Source of the DNA: a virus
DNA length: 24,257 nucleotides
Virus record (IMG/VR): IMGVR_UViG_3300035698_013615
Span: 1-24,257 of that record
Direction: 5' to 3' (one strand)
Shown: positions 4,044-20,675 of the stretch, one piece after another
How the letters are laid out: each line of letters opens with the position of its first letter
How positions within the stretch are numbered: position 1 is the first letter of the stretch
Notes under the pieces: model-generated
Told to the model about the DNA's origin: nothing
Databases searched by the model: none
Seen by the model: the letters and a program-made list of their open reading frames with translations, nothing else
Made by a program: the position numbers and the translations under genes

Positions 4044-4892
4044 ATGAAGAAGATATTAGCAGTTCTATTACTATTTTTGGCTCCTTGCTTTATTAGTTGT
4101 GATAATAAAGAAGTGATTATAGAAACTTTGTCTGATAATATTCGTACCCTGTTTGATATGGCAGGGACGAGGGCTAAAGATAAGAGTGAAGTGAGAATAG
4201 AGAAGTCAGTTGCTTCATTTTCAGATGTTTATAATGCTATATATGCCCAGTTAAATGAAGATCCGACTAATAGAAAGATCAAGAAAACTGTATCTAGATT
4301 TAATAAGAACATGAGAACGTTAGAGGTTAATCTTTGTACTCTTCTTCAGAGTGTTGAAGACGGAGAAATAAATCATAGAGCAGCTGAAAGGGTATTTATT
4401 TCACTAGAGAATCTTAAGAATAATGTAGAAGATAGTACATTAATAGAAGACACATTAAAGATAAGATTTGTAAAATCTGTAAAGATTATAGTTATTAGTG
4501 CTACTTCTATAATTAGTCTTATGTTTATAAATAAAGTTTATAACATGATGAAGCCAGACAAGAAAGAAGAAGAGTTTGTAGAAACGCTTGATGTTATAGA
4601 AGATGGAATGGAGCAAGTTTCAGGAAAGGCTAAAGAAGCTGGTACATTTGCTGAACGTGCTTTGAATACAACTGCTCGCACCCTTGAGGTTACTGTTAAT
4701 ACTGAAAGAGCAGTTGGAGAACTTGGAAAAAGAGTTGGCACAGCATTAGAAGATTATGAATCTAGAATAGAAGCGCTTGAAAAGAAAAAAGTTCCCATTA
4801 AAGAGTTTCAGGAACCGCAACAAGCGGAACTACCCAAACAACCGCTTGTTGCGGTTCCTGAAGCTAGTAAAAAATGGTTTAAATTTGGATAA
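4044..4892 (+). CDS. Phage lipoprotein with one internal membrane segment
   Basis: 282 aa of unknown function. The N-terminus is a lipoprotein signal: MKK, a hydrophobic stretch (residues 4-14), then FISC with Cys19 as the likely lipidated residue and Asp at +2. After a helical region, a second hydrophobic segment lies at about residues 146-166 (KIIVISATSIISLMFINKVY). It is followed by an acidic, coiled-coil-like region (about 175-250) and a Pro/Gln-rich tail. It begins 2 nt after the portal stop without a ribosome binding site, so translation is probably coupled to portal. Lipoproteins in phages can act in superinfection exclusion or lysis, or can modify the envelope during infection. The position within the head module does not decide which. 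A 21-bp perfect inverted repeat lies in the last 30 codons. Confidence 0.8.
   Translation: MKKILAVLLLFLAPCFISCDNKEVIIETLSDNIRTLFDMAGTRAKDKSEVRIEKSVASFSDVYNAIYAQLNEDPTNRKIKKTVSRFNKNMRTLEVNLCTLLQSVEDGEINHRAAERVFISLENLKNNVEDSTLIEDTLKIRFVKSVKIIVISATSIISLMFINKVYNMMKPDKKEEEFVETLDVIEDGMEQVSGKAKEAGTFAERALNTTARTLEVTVNTERAVGELGKRVGTALEDYESRIEALEKKKVPIKEFQEPQQAELPKQPLVAVPEASKKWFKFG
4807..4862. repeat. 21-bp perfect inverted repeat with 14-nt spacer, inside a gene
   Basis: The arm 4807-4827 (starting TTCAGGAACCGC, ending AAGCGG) is the exact reverse complement of 4842-4862. The spacer 4828-4841 is AACTACCCAAACAA. A further T-G wobble extends the stem at the base. It lies in frame near the end of the lipoprotein gene, encoding the Pro/Gln-rich tail, 30 nt before the stop. 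No T-tract follows on either strand, so it is not an ordinary intrinsic terminator. Confidence 0.9.
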
Positions 4893-5930: not shown

Positions 5931-6698
5931 ATGGAAGAAGAATCAAGACAGAACGAAGTTTTAGAAGAAACTCTAGGCGCAGTTAACGAAACAATTGAAG
6001 AAGTAACAAAGCAAGAAGAAGCTGTAAAGGAGGATGTTTCATCTAGTGATGTACCATCTAGAGATGTACCATCTAGAGATGTTTCTCCTTCTAGCAATCT
6101 AATAAAACTACGTGAAGCCAAGGAGAAAGCAGAATACGAACGCGATAAAATATTAGAGTATTATCGTAATGATCAACAACAAAAGAAACCTGAGCCAGTA
6201 GAAGAATTTAATGATTTTAATATTGGTGAAGATGATCTTGCTGAAGGAAAACATCTTAATAAAGTTGCTAAAAGAATAAGAGAACTTGAAAAGCAAGTTT
6301 CACAATTTCAGAAACAATCTACAGCTACAACAACGGAAGTTCGCTTAAAGAACAAGTATCCAGATTTTGATGTTGTTGTAAATTCAGATAACCTTTCAAT
6401 TTTGAGAAAAGATTATCCTGAAATAGCTAATACTATTAATGATTCTAAAGATCTTTATAACAAAGCAGTTACTGCATATACAATGTTAAAGAAACTAGGA
6501 ATACATATCGAAGATACTCATGAAACAGAAAAGAAATTAGTTCAAAGAAATATTTCTAAGCCAAGATCTCTTGCAAGTATTTCACCACAACAAGGAGATA
6601 GTCCTTTGTCTCATGCAAATGCTTTTGCTAACGGGCTTACTCCTGAATTAAAAGCAAAACTGTATCAAGAAGTTCTTGCTGCTAAAAAAAGACATTGA
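5931..6698 (+). CDS. Scaffold-like protein
   Basis: 255 aa, highly charged and largely helical, directly before the capsid block as scaffold genes usually are. The first 60 residues are acidic and disordered. A coiled-coil follows (about 60-80 and 110-128: KVAKRIRELEKQVSQFQKQ). A conserved-looking region comes next, RLKNKYPDFDVVVNSDNLSI (about 140-160), then DYPEIANTINDSKDLYNKAVTAYTM. The C-terminus is basic and helical (ELKAKLYQEVLAAKKRH), suitable for binding coat protein. It would guide procapsid assembly and leave or be cleaved later. ATG 5931 has AAAGGAG 6 nt upstream. The acidic linker contains three 15-nt repeats, and the stop is TGA. The role rests on composition, position and a remembered family pattern. 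Confidence 0.75.
   Translation: MEEESRQNEVLEETLGAVNETIEEVTKQEEAVKEDVSSSDVPSRDVPSRDVSPSSNLIKLREAKEKAEYERDKILEYYRNDQQQKKPEPVEEFNDFNIGEDDLAEGKHLNKVAKRIRELEKQVSQFQKQSTATTTEVRLKNKYPDFDVVVNSDNLSILRKDYPEIANTINDSKDLYNKAVTAYTMLKKLGIHIEDTHETEKKLVQRNISKPRSLASISPQQGDSPLSHANAFANGLTPELKAKLYQEVLAAKKRH
6039..6083 (+). repeat. Three 15-nt tandem repeats in the scaffold linker
   Basis: TCATCTAGTGATGTA, CCATCTAGAGATGTA and CCATCTAGAGATGTT are adjacent, encoding SSDV-PSRDV-PSRDV units. They lie in the disordered acidic region, where copy number could vary without loss of function. Confidence 0.85.
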
Positions 6699-6746
6699 TA
6701 TACTTTAGATAGTATTCTTTTCTTAGTGGGTGAGATTACTACTGTT

Positions 6747-6793
6747 TCCGTGTGCGGTTTTACTCCTTTTCTTGCCGCATGCGGAGTTTTTTT
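6747..6793 (+). terminator. Strong rho-independent terminator after the scaffold gene
   Basis: TCCGTGTGCGG (6747-6757) pairs with CCGCATGCGGA (6775-6785) over 11 positions with two G-U pairs and a 17-nt loop. A G and seven T residues (6787-6793) follow. The position, 49 nt after the scaffold stop, separates the packaging/assembly transcript from the capsid transcript. Confidence 0.85.
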
Positions 6794-6826: not shown

Positions 6827-6856
6827 TTGCATCTATATATGAAGAATGCTTATACT
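6827..6856 (+). promoter_or_regulatory. Candidate promoter for the capsid operon
   Basis: TATACT (6851-6856, 5 of 6 to the sigma70 -10 box) lies 18 nt after a poor -35 candidate TTGCAT (6827-6832). The location just downstream of a strong terminator and about 160 nt before the capsid start makes a promoter necessary somewhere here. The surrounding 10-mer TTATACTATA recurs before the tRNA-like element (1661-1670). A phage-modified or phage-specific recognition element is possible. Confidence 0.5.
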
Positions 6857-6895
6857 ATACCTGCGTATTGAAGAGTCGCGTCTTCGTTCTTTATC

Positions 6896-6980
6896 TGACG
6901 TAATGAGCCTCGTCAACTCACTTCGACGTAATGAGCCTCGTCAACTCAAATTGACGTACGTGCGCTTCGTCAGCGTTTGT
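6896..6980 (+). repeat. Array of three 28-nt repeats in the capsid leader
   Basis: Units begin at 6897, 6925 and 6953. The first two share 24 identical nt (GACGTAATGAGCCTCG plus TCAACTCA); the third keeps GACGTA and CGTCA but differs between. Each unit holds TGACG (or CGACG) and CGTCA in inverted orientation, able to form a small hairpin. The right half of one unit can also pair with the left half of the next, for example CGTCAA 6939-6944 with TTGACG 6951-6956. Seen as DNA, it is a row of alternating half-sites about 14 nt apart. It lies between the candidate promoter and the capsid start codon. Confidence 0.8.
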
Positions 6981-7013
6981 TAAATTTATATATTTATGTT
7001 GATAGGAAGTTAT

Positions 7014-7958
7014 ATGGCTATTACAACTACAACGCTCCTTCCAGCAGCAGTACAACAAAGTTTTGATGCTAAGTTGTTGGCGATTCCTGTTCCTCATATG
7101 ATCCACAAAATAGCTTCAGTTAAAAAGAGTATGCCAGCACATGGTGGCAGAATCTTGCGTATGGAAAGATATAATCCACTCGCAACAGCTATGGTTCCAT
7201 TGGGAAACTCAGGCGATACGCCACCACAACAAAACGTCACTAAAGTTGATATTGATGCTGAAATTTCATTTTTTGGAACACATGTTGCTATAAATGAACA
7301 AGTCATCTTGCAATCACAAAGCCCAATATTAAATATTAATATTGAACGACTTGGTGTTTCAATGCGTCAAACAGAAGATACACTTACAAGAAACATGCTT
7401 GCTTCTACAGCAACATTTGTTAACTGTACAGATGGTATCAATGGCGATACACCATCAGAAATTACACGTTCTGATGTTGATAATGTTTCTAGATCTTTGT
7501 TAAATAATGATGCTAAAACAATAGAAGAAGGTATTGAAGGTACTAACAAGTTTGGTACAGCTCCAATACGCGATGCTTATATTGCTTTAGGATCAACACA
7601 ACTATCTAAAGATCTTGATAATTGCACAGGATTTATTCATGCAAGCCAATATCCTTCAAGAATGGCCGCCCCTTCTGAAAGAGGATCAATTGGTGATGTA
7701 AGATTCTTCTTATCTTCAATCGGTTCTTATACAGCAGCTGCATCTGCACTTGGCGCAACTGTATATAACAGCTTTATTGTTGGTCAAGAAGCTTATGCAA
7801 GTATTGAACAAGATATGTATAGCGCAAAGACAATATACCGCGGACCTGAATTTAGTGGCCCATTAGCACAAAATTCAACCTTGGCATATAAATTTGCAGA
7901 ATGCCCAAGAATCTTAAATGATCTTTGGATTTTTAATCTTAGAACAACACTAGCGTAA
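7014..7958 (+). CDS. Major capsid protein, N4-gp56 family
   Basis: 314 aa forming the icosahedral shell. The sequence matches the N4-gp56 coat family as I know it. Examples are LLPAAVQQSFDAKLLAIPVP near the N-terminus, then MPAHGGRILRMERYNPLATA, FFGTHVAINEQVIL, RLGVSMRQTEDTLTRNMLA and INGDTPSEITRSDVD. The C-terminal part (YIALGSTQLSKDLD, GEFS-like loops, FAECPRILNDLWIFNLRTTLA) is also typical. I place the start at ATG 7014, with AGGA at 7004-7007. An in-frame ATG at 6996 lacks a ribosome binding site. The leader contains three structured repeats and a candidate promoter, consistent with separate high-level control. The next gene begins 9 nt after the stop. Confidence 0.93.
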   Translation: MAITTTTLLPAAVQQSFDAKLLAIPVPHMIHKIASVKKSMPAHGGRILRMERYNPLATAMVPLGNSGDTPPQQNVTKVDIDAEISFFGTHVAINEQVILQSQSPILNINIERLGVSMRQTEDTLTRNMLASTATFVNCTDGINGDTPSEITRSDVDNVSRSLLNNDAKTIEEGIEGTNKFGTAPIRDAYIALGSTQLSKDLDNCTGFIHASQYPSRMAAPSERGSIGDVRFFLSSIGSYTAAASALGATVYNSFIVGQEAYASIEQDMYSAKTIYRGPEFSGPLAQNSTLAYKFAECPRILNDLWIFNLRTTLA

Positions 7959-16129: not shown

Positions 16130-19100
16130 ATGGCAGATATTTTTGATAATCGTGCTAATCAACTTTCTTCACCTAAGAAAAGTAAAAATTCGTTTAAAAA
16201 ACAGGCTGAATATTATAACAAAACAAAAACGTTCTTTTCTGAATCACCTGAAGGACAAGATCTTGGAACTACATTTAAACAAGGAATACAGGGATCGTCC
16301 CTTGGTCAAGCCTTAGGTTTTAGTCCAACAGATATGACAACCAATGTTCCTATGTCACAAAGTCTTACTAAAGCAGCTGGGACTATTGCTGGAGATATTC
16401 CTGCAATGACAGGTGGAGCAACGATTGGTGGATTAGTTGGTGGTCCTGTTGGTGCAGGAGCTGGTGCGTTTGCATTTCCAGAATTAATCAAACAGATTCA
16501 AGAATATCGAAGAAAGCCCAAAAAAGAACGATTGCTTGATAAAATAAGTGATGTTGCACAAATACCTTGGCAAACGGTAAAGCAAGGAGTAGTTGGCGCA
16601 GCAACAAGTTTTGCAGGAGCTCTAGCGCCACTTATTAAGTTTTCTAATCCAGCTGTATCTAGAGTTGCTAAAAGTGCGTTAGGCGAAGCGCTTGTAAAAG
16701 GTGGAGCAGAATTTGCTGGAATGACAGGTTCGCAATCTGTACTTGAAGGAAGAGTTCCATCAGTTAGAGAGCTCGGGGAGAATGCTATTTTACTTGGTGG
16801 TATGAAGGGTGTTGGATTAGCTGCAAAGGGAATTAGAGCAGTAACTCCAGAATCTATAAAGGCACCTATTGGTAAAGCAGTAGAATCTGTTAAAGCAAAA
16901 GCTTCTGGATTGATACCTGAAGCAGCTAAACAAAAGGTTCAGCAATATAAAGATTCTCAAAAATATTATAATTTGCTTAGAAAACATATTGGTGAAAAGA
17001 ATAAATCTATTGTTGAAAGCCAGTTTAAATGGCGCAACGAATTAGAAAAAGCACAAATTAAAGAAAAATTAACTCCTAAACAATTAGAAGAAGCACTTTA
17101 TTACAGACAAAAAACAGGAAATCCATCTATTAAAGGTGATACATACGAACAACTTTCAACTCGTATCCCTAAAGAATTACAAAAGACAGTTGATACTGTT
17201 ATTGATGATCATTTTAAAACAACTCGTGAATTTATGAATAAACATAAATATATAAAAGATGTAAATCCACGAGACGCCCTTGTTGATAAATATATGCCTG
17301 GTATGTATGAACCAAGTAAAGATTTTGGAAAGGTTTACGACAAGGTAGCAAAACAATTAAAATTTAAGAATCCAATGGCTGAAATGAAAAACTTTTTGGA
17401 TTACCAAGAAGCTTTTGAGAAGGCCGGTTTAAAACCACGATTTAAGAACATTTTTCAGATGATGGAAGGTTATGACAGAACTTTCGCTAGAACAGTTTCT
17501 GGCGCCAATATGTTACAGGATCTTGAGGGTTTGCAATCAAAATCAGACAGTCCAATTGTAGTAACCAATAGAACTCCTAAGTTATATAAAATTGCTCAAC
17601 AGGCTGGATTTGTTCCTTTTGATGATTTCACATTGCGAGGATATACAAAAAAAGGTACTACATCTGGAAAACCAACACTTATGCCCGCACTTGTTGCGCC
17701 AGAAGCAGCCGGAGCATTTAAAGGTATTTTTAGTCAAGAAGCATTTAAACCAAAAAGTCCATTTCTAAAGGCATATGATACTCTTGGTGATATGGCTAGA
17801 TTTGGAAGAGTTAGACTTTCATTCTTCCATTTTGTTCCATTAACAGAAAGTTCTGCTGGAGCGCTTGGCGTTCGAAAGGCTTTTAATTTTAGAAACATTG
17901 CAGAGCAGGGAAACGACTTACGTGGTAATGCTGAGTTTATGTCTGATGCCGCAGAGCATGGACTTAAAGTTGAACCAGTTGAACGTTACCAACGAGCTAA
18001 AAAACTTGGTGCAAAAACTCAAGAACTTGCAGATAGATTAAGTGAAAAAGCTTTAAAAAAGATTCCAGAAAAAGTAGTAGATGTTTCCGGTAAGGCGTTA
18101 AAGGCAATTTCATCTCCATTGCGAACTCTTGCTCGTGCTCAAAAGTATTTGTTTGAACAATATCATCCAAATCTTAAAGCTGTTACATATCAAAATTTTA
18201 TTGATAAAGCGTTTAGTGAATTAGTTGCTGAAGGAAAAGCTCCTTCTGCAGCAGAGCGAACTAAGATTAAATACGACATGGCAGATTTAACTAATGCGCT
18301 ATATGGTGGTCAAAACTGGGAAATACAACGTGTATTTAATTCTCCTCAATACCGCAAATGGTTAAGTCGTGCTATTGGATATCCTGACTGGTGCTCGGAT
18401 TATGACACTAGAGCCATGACAAAAACAGGTTGGAAATACCACCACGAGCTTTCTATTGGTGATGAGATTATGGCTTTTGATCCAAAGACAAAAAATCTCG
18501 TTTGGAATAAGTTAAATGATATGTATGTAAATACTGATTATGATGGAGACATGGTTCAAATCAAGAATTATAATCGAGCCATAATGGTAACTCCAGATCA
18601 TACGTGTTATGTAGAACATGATAAAAGCAGGAAGAATCTTATTCTAAAAGCTGCTGAGCTTAATACTCATCATAAGATTCCAAGGTGTGCAGATTTTGCT
18701 ATATCAGAAAAAGAAATTTACAATGATTATCTCATTAAGATAGTTGGTTGGCTTGTTACTGATGGGCATATATTTAAACGCAAAAGAAAGAAAGTTGACG
18801 GAACTTTTTCTTCTAATTATGAAGCAAGAATTACCCAAACTAAACCACATACGGTTGAGATTTTAAAAGATCTAGGATTAAGTTTTTACGTAGATATGAA
18901 AAACTATGATCATGGAAAGTTTAAGGCTAATTATCCAAAATATGTGTTTAGAATTCCGACAGATGAAGTAAAAAACATTATTGATGCAGGTATAAATGCT
19001 GAAGACAAGACACTTACATGGAAATTTCTAAGCAAACTTAGCAAGCGACAATTAGAACTTTTATATGAAACGATGATGTTTGGTGACGGAACAGGTCAGA

Positions 19101-20182
19101 ATAGATTTTGTGGTAAAGAACGCGCAGTATTTTATATGACATTGGTTCAAGCAATGCTAGGAAAGCCTACAACATTTTATCAACAAGAAAAAAACTGCTG
19201 GCGAACAAGGATAGTAAAATCGAAAACAATATCTTGTCATGATAAAAAAATAATTAGCTATAAAGGTACAATTTGGTGCCCATCTGTAGATACTGGGTTT
19301 TGGGTTGCAGAACGCAAAGGCCTTATGTTTATAACAGGTAATACAACGTCAGCAGTACGCCAAGCAGCCAATGTATTTTCTGGTGGACTCAAAGGACAAA
19401 ATGCTAGAAATTATTGGATTAAGTTTGGCGTGAATTCTGTTGCTGCTCATTCATTATTACAGTTTATGTTTGGGGGTATGGAACAATCAGATAAGAAAGA
19501 TTATAGCGTTAAAGGAATTCGCTGGAATCCTGAAAAAGCTAGACAGTCTGTATTAAGTCCTGATCCAATTGAATGGTTTAAATTCCCATTGCCAGATGTT
19601 CCTGTAAAAATAGGTGGGAAAATGTTCAATCCTGGACGTGATGCAGGAACTAAGTGGAAACCAGAAGGTACAAAACTATATTCTCATTTTGGTAAACAAG
19701 CACTTGAAATAAAAGATGAAATGTATCATCCATTTAGCACGCTTTTTAGTAAATCAAATCCTTTAATTCAAATGGCGTGGAAGCAAGTTCTTGGTTCATC
19801 TCCAAGTAAAAGAGATCCATTTGCAGTTCGAAGCAGATATGTTCCTGCGTCTAGAAAATGGGAAGCATGGGATGCAACTAAAAAAGGAACTCCTGAACGA
19901 TTTGTTTCAAGGGCAGCACAACTTGTAGAAGATGTAGCACCATTTTCAATGCATGCGTTAAAGCAGCATGGAGTTGCTCCATATTTGGCTACTGGTCTTG
20001 CAAGTGTTCCTATATCCAAAGGAACAACTAAATACAAAGCTGAACCAGAATTAGAAAAAGCATTTAAGAAAAATGATATTAAAACGGTAAATAGAATTAG
20101 AACTGCTCTTAAAGATAATGGATGGAGCGATAAACAAATAAGATTAATCATTAATAAAGCAAGAAAAGCATCAAAAGATTAA
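16130..20182 (+). CDS. Large internal/ejection protein interrupted by an intein
   Basis: The frame of 1350 codons encodes a host protein of about 1033 residues plus a 317-residue intein (residues 755-1071). The host protein has a polar start and a Gly/Ala-rich hydrophobic stretch (about 82-120, GGATIGGLVGGPVGAGAGAF). It also has long Lys/Glu-rich helical regions (about 270-350) and conserved-looking blocks such as FGRVRLSFFHFVPLTESSAG and YGGQNWEIQRVFNSPQYRKW. It ends in a basic tail (IRLIINKARKASKD). I recognise no enzyme domain. Length, position after two internal proteins and the mixture of helical and hydrophobic segments suggest an ejection protein that helps DNA cross the envelope. It starts 2 nt after the previous stop, with AAGG as a weak site. 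The insertion site reads GYPDW, then intein, then TTSAVRQA. Confidence 0.75.
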   Translation: MADIFDNRANQLSSPKKSKNSFKKQAEYYNKTKTFFSESPEGQDLGTTFKQGIQGSSLGQALGFSPTDMTTNVPMSQSLTKAAGTIAGDIPAMTGGATIGGLVGGPVGAGAGAFAFPELIKQIQEYRRKPKKERLLDKISDVAQIPWQTVKQGVVGAATSFAGALAPLIKFSNPAVSRVAKSALGEALVKGGAEFAGMTGSQSVLEGRVPSVRELGENAILLGGMKGVGLAAKGIRAVTPESIKAPIGKAVESVKAKASGLIPEAAKQKVQQYKDSQKYYNLLRKHIGEKNKSIVESQFKWRNELEKAQIKEKLTPKQLEEALYYRQKTGNPSIKGDTYEQLSTRIPKELQKTVDTVIDDHFKTTREFMNKHKYIKDVNPRDALVDKYMPGMYEPSKDFGKVYDKVAKQLKFKNPMAEMKNFLDYQEAFEKAGLKPRFKNIFQMMEGYDRTFARTVSGANMLQDLEGLQSKSDSPIVVTNRTPKLYKIAQQAGFVPFDDFTLRGYTKKGTTSGKPTLMPALVAPEAAGAFKGIFSQEAFKPKSPFLKAYDTLGDMARFGRVRLSFFHFVPLTESSAGALGVRKAFNFRNIAEQGNDLRGNAEFMSDAAEHGLKVEPVERYQRAKKLGAKTQELADRLSEKALKKIPEKVVDVSGKALKAISSPLRTLARAQKYLFEQYHPNLKAVTYQNFIDKAFSELVAEGKAPSAAERTKIKYDMADLTNALYGGQNWEIQRVFNSPQYRKWLSRAIGYPDWCSDYDTRAMTKTGWKYHHELSIGDEIMAFDPKTKNLVWNKLNDMYVNTDYDGDMVQIKNYNRAIMVTPDHTCYVEHDKSRKNLILKAAELNTHHKIPRCADFAISEKEIYNDYLIKIVGWLVTDGHIFKRKRKKVDGTFSSNYEARITQTKPHTVEILKDLGLSFYVDMKNYDHGKFKANYPKYVFRIPTDEVKNIIDAGINAEDKTLTWKFLSKLSKRQLELLYETMMFGDGTGQNRFCGKERAVFYMTLVQAMLGKPTTFYQQEKNCWRTRIVKSKTISCHDKKIISYKGTIWCPSVDTGFWVAERKGLMFITGNTTSAVRQAANVFSGGLKGQNARNYWIKFGVNSVAAHSLLQFMFGGMEQSDKKDYSVKGIRWNPEKARQSVLSPDPIEWFKFPLPDVPVKIGGKMFNPGRDAGTKWKPEGTKLYSHFGKQALEIKDEMYHPFSTLFSKSNPLIQMAWKQVLGSSPSKRDPFAVRSRYVPASRKWEAWDATKKGTPERFVSRAAQLVEDVAPFSMHALKQHGVAPYLATGLASVPISKGTTKYKAEPELEKAFKKNDIKTVNRIRTALKDNGWSDKQIRLIINKARKASKD
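18392..19342 (+). other. Intein with LAGLIDADG homing endonuclease (317 aa)
   Basis: The intein starts at Cys755 (TGC 18392-18394) and ends at Asn1071 (AAT 19340-19342), followed by Thr1072 as the +1 nucleophile. Block A reads CSDYDTRAMTKTGW, followed by LSIGDEIMAFDP. Block B is VTPDHTCYV with Thr821 and His824. Two LAGLIDADG motifs are visible: IVGWLVTDGH (871-880, Asp878) and LLYETMMFGDG (977-987, Asp986). Block F/G is DTGFWVAERKGLMFITGN. The penultimate residue is Gly rather than the usual His, a variation known in some active inteins. All the splicing residues are present, so it should splice itself out. The endonuclease would cut intein-less alleles and spread the element. Confidence 0.9.
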
Positions 20183-20183
20183 C

Positions 20184-20627
20184 TTATTTCTCTCTTCTTA
20201 ATTTTTCTACAAGTGCCCTTATAACATATTTTGTAAGGGTACAATTTTTTTCTTCAGTAGTTTTATATAAATAACTATGTATTTTTTCTGGTAAATCTAC
20301 GCTTAATCGACGCCTTCCATTTCGCGAAAAGGCCAATAGGCTTTTTTTTTTATTAATCTTCTTTGCTATTTCTTCTCTTTTTGTAAGATATAAATGCTTT
20401 GGATTAACACACATTCTGTTATTACAGGTTTTTCCTATACACATCTTGTATGGAATCTCTCCATTATATATAATCCAGCTTACTCTATGAGCATTTGTAC
20501 TTAGATCTTTATAGAAGAATCGAGGATATCCTTTATTATTAGGTTTTCCTGTCCATAGCCAACAATCATCTTCGGTTTCACCTTTTAAGATATTCTTTTT
20601 AAAGCGCAATATTGTCTTTAATTTCAT
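20184..20627 (-). CDS. HNH-type protein fused to a ribbon-helix-helix domain, 147 aa
   Basis: The only clear minus-strand gene, ending 1 nt from the ejection-protein stop. I place the start at 20627, with AAAGGAG upstream; an in-frame ATG at 20663 lacks a site. Residues about 20-80 show an HNH pattern: CWLWTG, AHRVSWIIYNGEIPYKM, then CNNRMCVNPKHLYLT. His47, Asn75, Pro76 and His78 are present. In family members I recall, the sequence before CxN carries H-x-C; here it reads GKTC, so a usual active-site His seems replaced by Lys66. Residues 105-147 (RRLSVDLPEKIHSYLYKTTE, LTKYVIRALVEKLRREK) form a ribbon-helix-helix DNA-binding domain. Either a homing-type nuclease with a different DNA-binding module, or a DNA-binding regulator derived from one. 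Confidence 0.8.
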   Translation of the reverse strand: MKLKTILRFKKNILKGETEDDCWLWTGKPNNKGYPRFFYKDLSTNAHRVSWIIYNGEIPYKMCIGKTCNNRMCVNPKHLYLTKREEIAKKINKKKSLLAFSRNGRRRLSVDLPEKIHSYLYKTTEEKNCTLTKYVIRALVEKLRREK

Positions 20628-20646
20628 AATACTCCTTTTTCCTGGA

Positions 20647-20675
20647 AACATAGACCAGTTCATTGTTTATGTCAA
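20647..20675 (-). promoter_or_regulatory. Sigma70-type promoter for the HNH-RHH gene
   Basis: On the minus strand TTGACA (20670-20675, perfect -35) is followed after exactly 17 nt by TATGTT (20647-20652, 4 of 6 for a -10). Transcription would start about 7 nt later, just before the ribosome binding site, giving a very short leader. The gene therefore does not depend on the phage late transcripts, which run in the other direction. Confidence 0.7.

What the first reader, a model, noticed from the sequence alone, without database searches (positions are those of the whole stretch)
6896..6980. Tandem 28-nt inverted half-site array in the capsid gene leader
Three units spaced exactly 28 nt apart sit between a candidate promoter and the major capsid start. 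TGACG and CGTCA alternate about every 14 nt, so each right half can pair with its own left half or with the next unit's left half. That permits competing RNA hairpins, or cooperative binding of a phage protein as DNA operators. Two units share 24 identical nt, while the third has diverged except for the half-sites, which suggests the half-sites are what is kept. I know of no described control element of this kind for N4-gp56-type capsid genes.
Basis: partly seen in the sequence, partly recalled or inferred. Interest (0 to 1): 0.72.

Follow-up and report, generated by a model that had tools for sequence, protein, structure and literature searches.

The report
Tandem RNA pseudoknots leading phage capsid mRNA
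Just before the major coat-protein gene of this uncultivated phage, and of many related and even unrelated phages, the messenger RNA carries a row of two to six tiny knotted structures that in most cases begin exactly where transcription is predicted to start, probably to protect or boost the message for the virus's most abundant protein; no catalogue searched here lists this element.

Summary
The repeat is real but is only part of the feature. The window holds four units (6862-6976), not three. Relatives' capsid leaders carry 1-6 such units, with strong covariation in both stems: S2 890/1168 Watson-Crick cells versus 458 +/- 15 shuffled. S2 pairs within its own unit, not with neighbours. G-U pairs favour RNA in the capsid sense. 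Among 87 arrays in N4-gp56 phages, the first unit sits exactly at the predicted +1: a -10 box ends 5-7 nt upstream of 65/87 first units but 1/178 later units. Sequence-only scans found arrays only before major capsid genes, of three unrelated families. There is no Rfam match and none in the isolate phages checked. Best explanation: a cis-acting RNA array at the 5' end of capsid mRNA that blocks 5'-end-dependent decay (favoured), or recruits ribosomes or a regulator. The structure is well supported; the function, and simultaneous formation of S1 and S2, are inferred. A second phage group has the array between genes without a promoter, so 5'-terminal placement is not universal.

The parts
6746..6793 (+). 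Intrinsic terminator after the scaffold-type gene: 13-bp hairpin then TTTTTTT; separates the capsid transcription unit from the upstream gene
   Evidence: Folding of 6742-6793 gives a 13-bp stem at -20.1 kcal/mol followed by the T-run
6827..6856 (+). Sigma-70-like promoter: -35 TTGCAT (6827-6832), 18-nt spacer, -10 TATACT (6851-6856); predicted +1 at G6863
   Evidence: Coordinates; the same -35/-10 placement relative to the first unit recurs in relatives. TSS inferred, not measured.
6862..6885 (+). Unit 0: S1 (U)GCG 6862-6865 with CGC(G) 6877-6880; S2 GAAGA 6870-6874 with UCUUC 6881-6885; begins at the predicted +1.
   Evidence: first-unit class TGCG...CGCG recurs in relatives with the -10 box shifted by 1 nt so that +1 is the G
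6897..6920 (+). Unit 1: S1 GACG 6897-6900 with CGUC 6911-6914; S2 UGAG 6904-6907 with CUCA 6917-6920
6925..6948 (+). Unit 2: S1 GACG 6925-6928 with CGUC 6939-6942; S2 UGAG 6932-6935 with CUCA 6945-6948
6953..6976 (+). Unit 3: S1 GACG 6953-6956 with CGUC 6968-6971; L3 A6972; S2 GCGC 6962-6965 with GCGU 6973-6976 (nearest relative L003: GCAC/GUGC, i.e. compensated)
6977..7013 (+). Unstructured AU-rich spacer with Shine-Dalgarno-like AGGAAG (7004-7009) before the capsid ATG at 7014
   Evidence: sequence
7014..7958 (+). N4-gp56 family major capsid protein gene
   Evidence: TIGR04387 E=3.4e-35, 121.9 bits vs cut-off 60; phrog_1357 major head protein
5931..6698 (+). Upstream gene, position and relatives of a scaffold protein (no family match)
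   Evidence: homologues lie directly before the capsid gene in relatives

Best explanation
The feature is a cis-acting RNA element: a tandem array of small H-type-pseudoknot units that forms the 5' leader of the capsid mRNA. Consensus unit: S1a RRCG - L1 UA(N) - S2a - L2 (N)NU - S1b CGYY - L3 A - S2b. Shown here by sequence evidence: two crossing stems per unit under covariation, RNA strand polarity, tandem copies, restriction to capsid (or scaffold-capsid) leaders, and registration of the first unit to the predicted transcription start in the N4-gp56 group. Inferred: both stems form together as a pseudoknot. In this window the capsid gene is cut off from the scaffold gene by a terminator and has its own promoter, and the transcript is predicted to begin at the first base of S1 of unit 0, leaving no unpaired 5' nucleotide. 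The most likely function is to shield the capsid message from 5'-end-dependent decay (pyrophosphohydrolase and the 5'-sensing ribonucleases RNase E/J). The further units would act as successive barriers, so that the most abundant virion protein gets a long-lived mRNA. In the operon-internal arrays of the second phage group, the same barrier would protect the capsid part of a longer transcript. Confidence by step: structured RNA array about 0.93; simultaneous pseudoknot rather than alternating stems about 0.75; decay barrier as the main function about 0.45.
For: Covariation of S1, with only the CG/UCG core anchored: 135 of 162 units form both outer S1 pairs, against a shuffled mean of 62 and a maximum of 78 in 1000. 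Covariation of S2, not used in selecting units: a clean diagonal in the pairing map in both capsid groups. WC cells are 890/1168 vs 458 +/- 15 in the N4-gp56 group and 110/184 vs 75.5 +/- 6 in the second group. On 98 gapless 25-mers the covariation score is 0.509 vs 0.186 shuffled and at most 0.161 for slid registers. Own S2b pairs in 0.74 of cells vs 0.38 for S2b of a neighbouring unit. RNA strand: G-U is favoured and A-C is not at S1 and S2 positions; forward 116 vs reverse 40 vs shuffled 4.6 hits. Location: 102 strict units in 300-nt capsid leaders vs 14 (+) and 9 (-) elsewhere in 1.37 Mb, several of those 14 also being capsid or scaffold leaders. Two sequence-only scans gave 67 + 26 loci with at least 2 paired units, all before a major capsid gene. 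+1 registration: a -10 box ends at -7..-5 of S1a for 65/87 first units and 1/178 later units; -35 TTG at -36..-34. The requirement of B. subtilis RppH for at least two unpaired 5' nucleotides is stated in PMC3997798.
Against: No experiment: TSS, structure and decay are unmeasured. L3 is only 1-2 nt across a 4-bp S1, shorter than in textbook H-type pseudoknots (own knowledge), so S1 and S2 might alternate instead. In the phrog_9953 phage group none of 15 first units has a -10 box, and the array follows or overlaps the end of the upstream gene, so 5'-terminal placement is not universal. One 5'-terminal unit should suffice for 5'-end protection; 2-6 copies with conserved unpaired bases (UA, U, A) hint at a binding partner. 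Hosts, and therefore their RNases, are unknown.
Confidence: 0.5

Rival explanations
1. Translation enhancer: the pseudoknots are landing sites for ribosomal protein S1 / 30S (standby site) and raise initiation on the capsid mRNA.
For: A 5' pseudoknot is required for S1/30S standby binding on tisB mRNA, and that paper states many pseudoknots have high S1 affinity (PMC7708055). Works for both 5'-terminal and intercistronic arrays. In the subclade with the array before the scaffold gene, the last unit abuts the Shine-Dalgarno sequence. An AU-rich single-stranded spacer follows the array in the window.
Against: Does not by itself explain the exact +1 registration of the first unit. The distance from the array to the SD differs between subclades.
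Confidence: 0.25
2. Autoregulatory operator RNA: a phage protein (capsid, scaffold or other) binds the units cooperatively and tunes capsid synthesis, as gp32 does on the T4 gene 32 pseudoknot.
For: Tandem copies with conserved unpaired bases (C3 G4 T14 C15 G16 invariant and T5 A6 nearly so in A2; part of this is imposed by the search pattern) look like a repeated recognition site. One array per capsid transcript. T4 precedent (PMC3014915).
Against: The same unit consensus stands before three capsid families that share no sequence similarity found here, so a cognate capsid-RNA pair would have had to arise repeatedly. Exact +1 placement is not needed for this.
Confidence: 0.17
3. Switch or attenuator: S1 and S2 are alternative hairpins, each 4-5 bp, whose exchange exposes or hides downstream signals, or acts on the polymerase (put-like antitermination).
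For: S1 and S2 cross, so they could alternate; each is weakly to moderately stable alone (median -4.2 and -2.5 kcal/mol). L3 is very short for a simultaneous pseudoknot.
Against: No terminator or SD-sequestering partner between array and ATG. S2 and S1 keep a fixed register in hundreds of units, which fits one compact fold better than a switch.
Confidence: 0.08
4. DNA element: binding sites for a dimeric transcription factor overlapping the capsid promoter.
For: S1 half-sites are palindromic, and the array lies directly downstream of the promoter.
Against: S2 covaries without shared sequence (67 distinct S2 pairs with at least 4 WC pairs). S1 itself varies between units of one array. G-U pairs are favoured over A-C, and there is strong strand polarity.
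Confidence: 0.03

Closest known systems
Bacteriophage T4 gene 32 mRNA pseudoknot (gp32 autoregulation)
   Same: Small pseudoknot in the 5' leader of a phage mRNA, 67 nt upstream of the start codon (PMC3014915)
   Different: Single pseudoknot followed by UUAA(A) repeats, controls an ssDNA-binding protein; not tandem, not before a capsid gene, not shown to start at +1
ompA-type 5'-terminal mRNA stabilisers (Bouvet and Belasco; cited in PMC3997798)
   Same: A base-paired structure at the extreme 5' end protects an abundant protein's mRNA from 5'-dependent decay; works like this in the favoured model
   Different: Plain stem-loops in cellular genes; no crossing stem, no conserved tandem units
tisB standby-site pseudoknot (PMC7708055)
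   Same: Pseudoknot near the 5' end of an mRNA, far upstream of the RBS, acting through S1/30S
   Different: Single element on a chromosomal toxin mRNA with a sequestered RBS; different sequence and no array
Upstream pseudoknot domain of tobamovirus 3' UTRs; tandem pseudoknots of aphthovirus 5' UTRs
   Same: Consecutive small pseudoknots in a viral untranslated region (UPD: PMC4683447; the number of pseudoknots and the aphthovirus case are own knowledge)
   Different: RNA viruses of eukaryotes, genomic RNA ends; no homology
Rfam release 15 families (4227)
   Same: Would include any curated leader RNA of this type
   Different: No relevant match in the window leader or in relatives

Membership tests
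T4 gene 32-type autoregulatory pseudoknot | one H-type pseudoknot followed by A+U-rich (UUAA) repeats up to the RBS | tested here: not met
   Array of 2-6 units; sequence unlike; no UUAA repeat tract
T4 gene 32-type autoregulatory pseudoknot | repression by the encoded protein | not testable with these tools
   needs binding and reporter assays
5'-terminal mRNA stabiliser (ompA-like) | paired structure starting at or within 1-2 nt of the transcript 5' end | tested here: met
   N4-gp56 group only: -10 box at -7..-5 of the first unit in 65/87 vs 1/178 for later units; predicted TSS, not measured. Second group: 0/15
5'-terminal mRNA stabiliser (ompA-like) | longer mRNA half-life that depends on the structure | not testable with these tools
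   needs half-life measurements
S1-dependent standby site (tisB-like) | S1/30S binding lost on breaking stem 2 | not testable with these tools
   needs toeprint and binding assays
Any curated Rfam family | covariance-model match | tested here: not met
   no match in the window leader; only two weak matches (E 0.09 and 0.7, far below gathering scores) in relatives
DNA operator array | conserved half-site sequence independent of strand | tested here: not met
   variable stems with conserved complementarity, G-U bias, strand polarity

The most novel reading that the evidence does not exclude
A previously undescribed phage RNA class: tandem mini-pseudoknot arrays that capsid mRNAs of largely uncultivated phages carry at their very 5' end, shared by at least three capsid families with no detectable sequence similarity, either spread horizontally as a capsid-expression module or arisen repeatedly, and acting through one common host factor (RNase, ribosome or S1).
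Probability: 0.6. Interest if true: 0.85.

Novelty: new variant of a known kind. Interest (0 to 1): 0.8.

Why it matters
The coat protein is a phage's most heavily made product, yet few cis-acting RNA elements are known to control its mRNA in dsDNA phages. Here one compact element recurs in over a hundred uncultivated phages and before unrelated capsid families, with strong covariation support. It gives a search signature for capsid transcripts in metagenomes. It offers a testable case of 5'-end protection or ribosome recruitment by pseudoknots, and a possible portable 5' tag for stabilising or boosting bacterial mRNAs. It also shows how nested RNA folding misses such elements (z near 0).

Tried and rejected
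Nested folding of the leader: z -0.07, uninformative because the stems cross. Rfam scans: nothing. DNA-operator reading: rejected. N4 virion-RNAP hairpin promoters considered: not pursued, because the stems are crossing RNA stems in the capsid sense downstream of a sigma-70-like promoter (and N4's ~3500-aa enzyme seems too large for ~40-kb genomes; own knowledge). Isolated phages with distant capsids (Pseudoalteromonas Y3, Bacillus Page, StenR_269, Paenibacillus API480, Rollin, Mx8, Mx9, Mae-Yong1326-1, BUCT555, ppBjS10J-1, Jasmine, DS1, PT11-V19 and uncultured records): no array in capsid or scaffold leaders. BLASTN of the leader against isolate phages: only short chance matches. Literature searches for tandem pseudoknots in phages or capsid leaders: nothing relevant (open-licence papers only).

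Full report
What is in the window. The window is a 24,257-base uncultivated virus record. It encodes a large terminase, portal, a putative scaffold gene (5931-6698), an N4-gp56 major capsid gene (7014-7958; TIGR04387 E=3.4e-35; phrog_1357) and virion genes. Between scaffold and capsid lie a strong terminator (13-bp stem then T7), a sigma-70-like promoter (TTGCAT-18-TATACT, 6827-6856), and the repeats. They are more than chance.

The nearest relative (L003, capsid 71% identical) has GGCG...CGCC where the window has GACG...CGTC, so the half-sites co-vary. Reading more leaders shows a second stem in every unit. The loop of the first hairpin pairs with bases just 3' of it: UGAG/CUCA in units 1 and 2, GCGC/GCGU in unit 3 (GCAC/GUGC in L003), GAAGA/UCUUC in an upstream unit 0. 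The unit is S1a(4)-L1-S2a(4-5)-L2(2-3)-S1b(4)-L3(1-2)-S2b, an H-type pseudoknot topology, and the window has four of them (6862-6976). Some relatives carry a hairpin inserted in L1 (L003, L042, L043), as expected of an exposed loop.

Statistics. Capsid searches in IMG/VR and GTDB genomes gave 111 leaders. In 93 non-redundant leaders, 116 pseudoknot units score above threshold on the capsid strand, 40 on the other strand and about 5 in dinucleotide shuffles. Anchoring only on CG...UCG, both outer S1 pairs form in 135 of 162 units (shuffled mean 62, maximum 78). With units chosen without reference to S2, the pairing map shows S2 as a clean diagonal, +24 to +44 percentage points over independence at its core. 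Watson-Crick cells are 890/1168 against 458 +/- 15. Swapping S2b between units of the same leader drops pairing from 0.74 to 0.38. On 98 gapless 25-mers the covariation score is 0.509 against 0.186 shuffled and at most 0.161 slid, with compensatory changes in all five S2 pairs and both variable S1 pairs. S1 in that set is paired by selection, so S2 is the independent test there.

RNA, not DNA. At the outermost S1 pair, G-U occurs 10 times and A-C twice although both are expected equally by composition. G-U is enriched about 2-4 fold at the ends of S2 cores while A-C is near expectation, after allowing for the exclusion of Watson-Crick pairs. A DNA palindrome would not distinguish these, and a crossing stem has no DNA-duplex meaning.

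Where it occurs. In 1.37 Mb of related loci, 102 strict units lie within 300 nt of the capsid start, against 14 and 9 on the two strands elsewhere. Of the 14, L110 and L123 are capsid leaders whose gene is split by an insertion. L004, L122 and L139 belong to a subclade in which the array sits before the scaffold gene, with little gap between scaffold and capsid. Two scans of IMG/VR by sequence alone returned 67 and 26 loci with at least two paired units. All precede a major capsid gene: N4-gp56 by HMM or, for L160 and L364 at contig ends, by its first residues; L166 before a phrog_9953 capsid; L328 before a phrog_14242 capsid. The N4-gp56 and phrog_9953 capsids show no sequence similarity. Relatives of L166 carry the same arrays with the same S2 diagonal.

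The array starts at +1. Aligning N4-gp56-group leaders at the first base of the first unit reveals a promoter in register: -35 TTG at -36..-34 and -10 TAnnnT at -12..-7, the canonical distances from +1. A -10 box ends 5-7 nt upstream of 65 of 87 first units and of 1 of 178 later units. First units of the UGCG type have the box one base closer, so that +1 is the following G. The predicted transcript therefore begins with the S1 strand, leaving no unpaired 5' end. Bacterial RppH needs unpaired 5' nucleotides (stated for B. subtilis RppH in PMC3997798), and 5'-terminal base pairing is a known stabiliser. The array is thus placed where a decay barrier should be.

Limits. The phrog_9953 group has the array between genes, the first unit close to or overlapping the upstream stop codon, with no promoter (0 of 15). 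A function restricted to the very 5' end therefore cannot be the whole story. A barrier against 5'-to-3' decay of the capsid part, a ribosome/S1 landing site (precedent tisB, PMC7708055) or a protein operator (precedent T4 gene 32, PMC3014915) would work in both places. L3 of 1-2 nt is short for a simultaneous pseudoknot. No isolate phage examined carries the array, which may explain why it has not been described. Rfam and the open literature searched hold nothing like it.

Verdict. A well-supported new structured RNA element, far more than the chance-like repeat it first seems. The function is inferred.

Noticed in passing
window 16130-20182: The 1350-aa virion-type ORF contains what looks like an intein (Hint-like block beginning near CSDYDTRAMTKTGWKYHHELSIGDEIMAFD and ending near GLMFITGN); Pfam and NCBIfam gave no intein match, so this is by eye only.
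   Followed up: partly
window 20184-20663 (-): HNH homing-endonuclease-like gene (PF13392, E=1.3e-5) on the opposite strand between virion genes.
   Followed up: no
L110, L123; also L010, L013, L022, L024, L042 (capsid matches stop near residue 96 or 115): Capsid genes of several relatives are interrupted by insertions, probably introns with homing endonucleases: L123 and L110 after about the first 12 codons, others near residue 96 or 115 (the L010, L022 and possibly other breaks are at contig ends). Terminase genes are also broken near residues 123 and 403.
   Followed up: partly
window 4044-4892: A 282-aa ORF after the portal gene starts with a lipoprotein-like signal (MKKILAVLLLFLAPCFISC); no family match.
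   Followed up: no
window 6040-6082: 15-nt tandem repeat inside the scaffold-type gene, encoding SSDVPSRDVPSRDV.
   Followed up: no
L003, L042, L043 leaders: Self-complementary hairpins (e.g. GACAC-ATC-GUGUC in L003) are inserted exactly in loop L1 of single units.
   Followed up: partly
L134, L138, L141: Capsid relatives in genome collections turn up in chlamydial MAG contigs (Simkaniaceae, Parachlamydiaceae), a hint at hosts but possibly binning artefacts.
   Followed up: no
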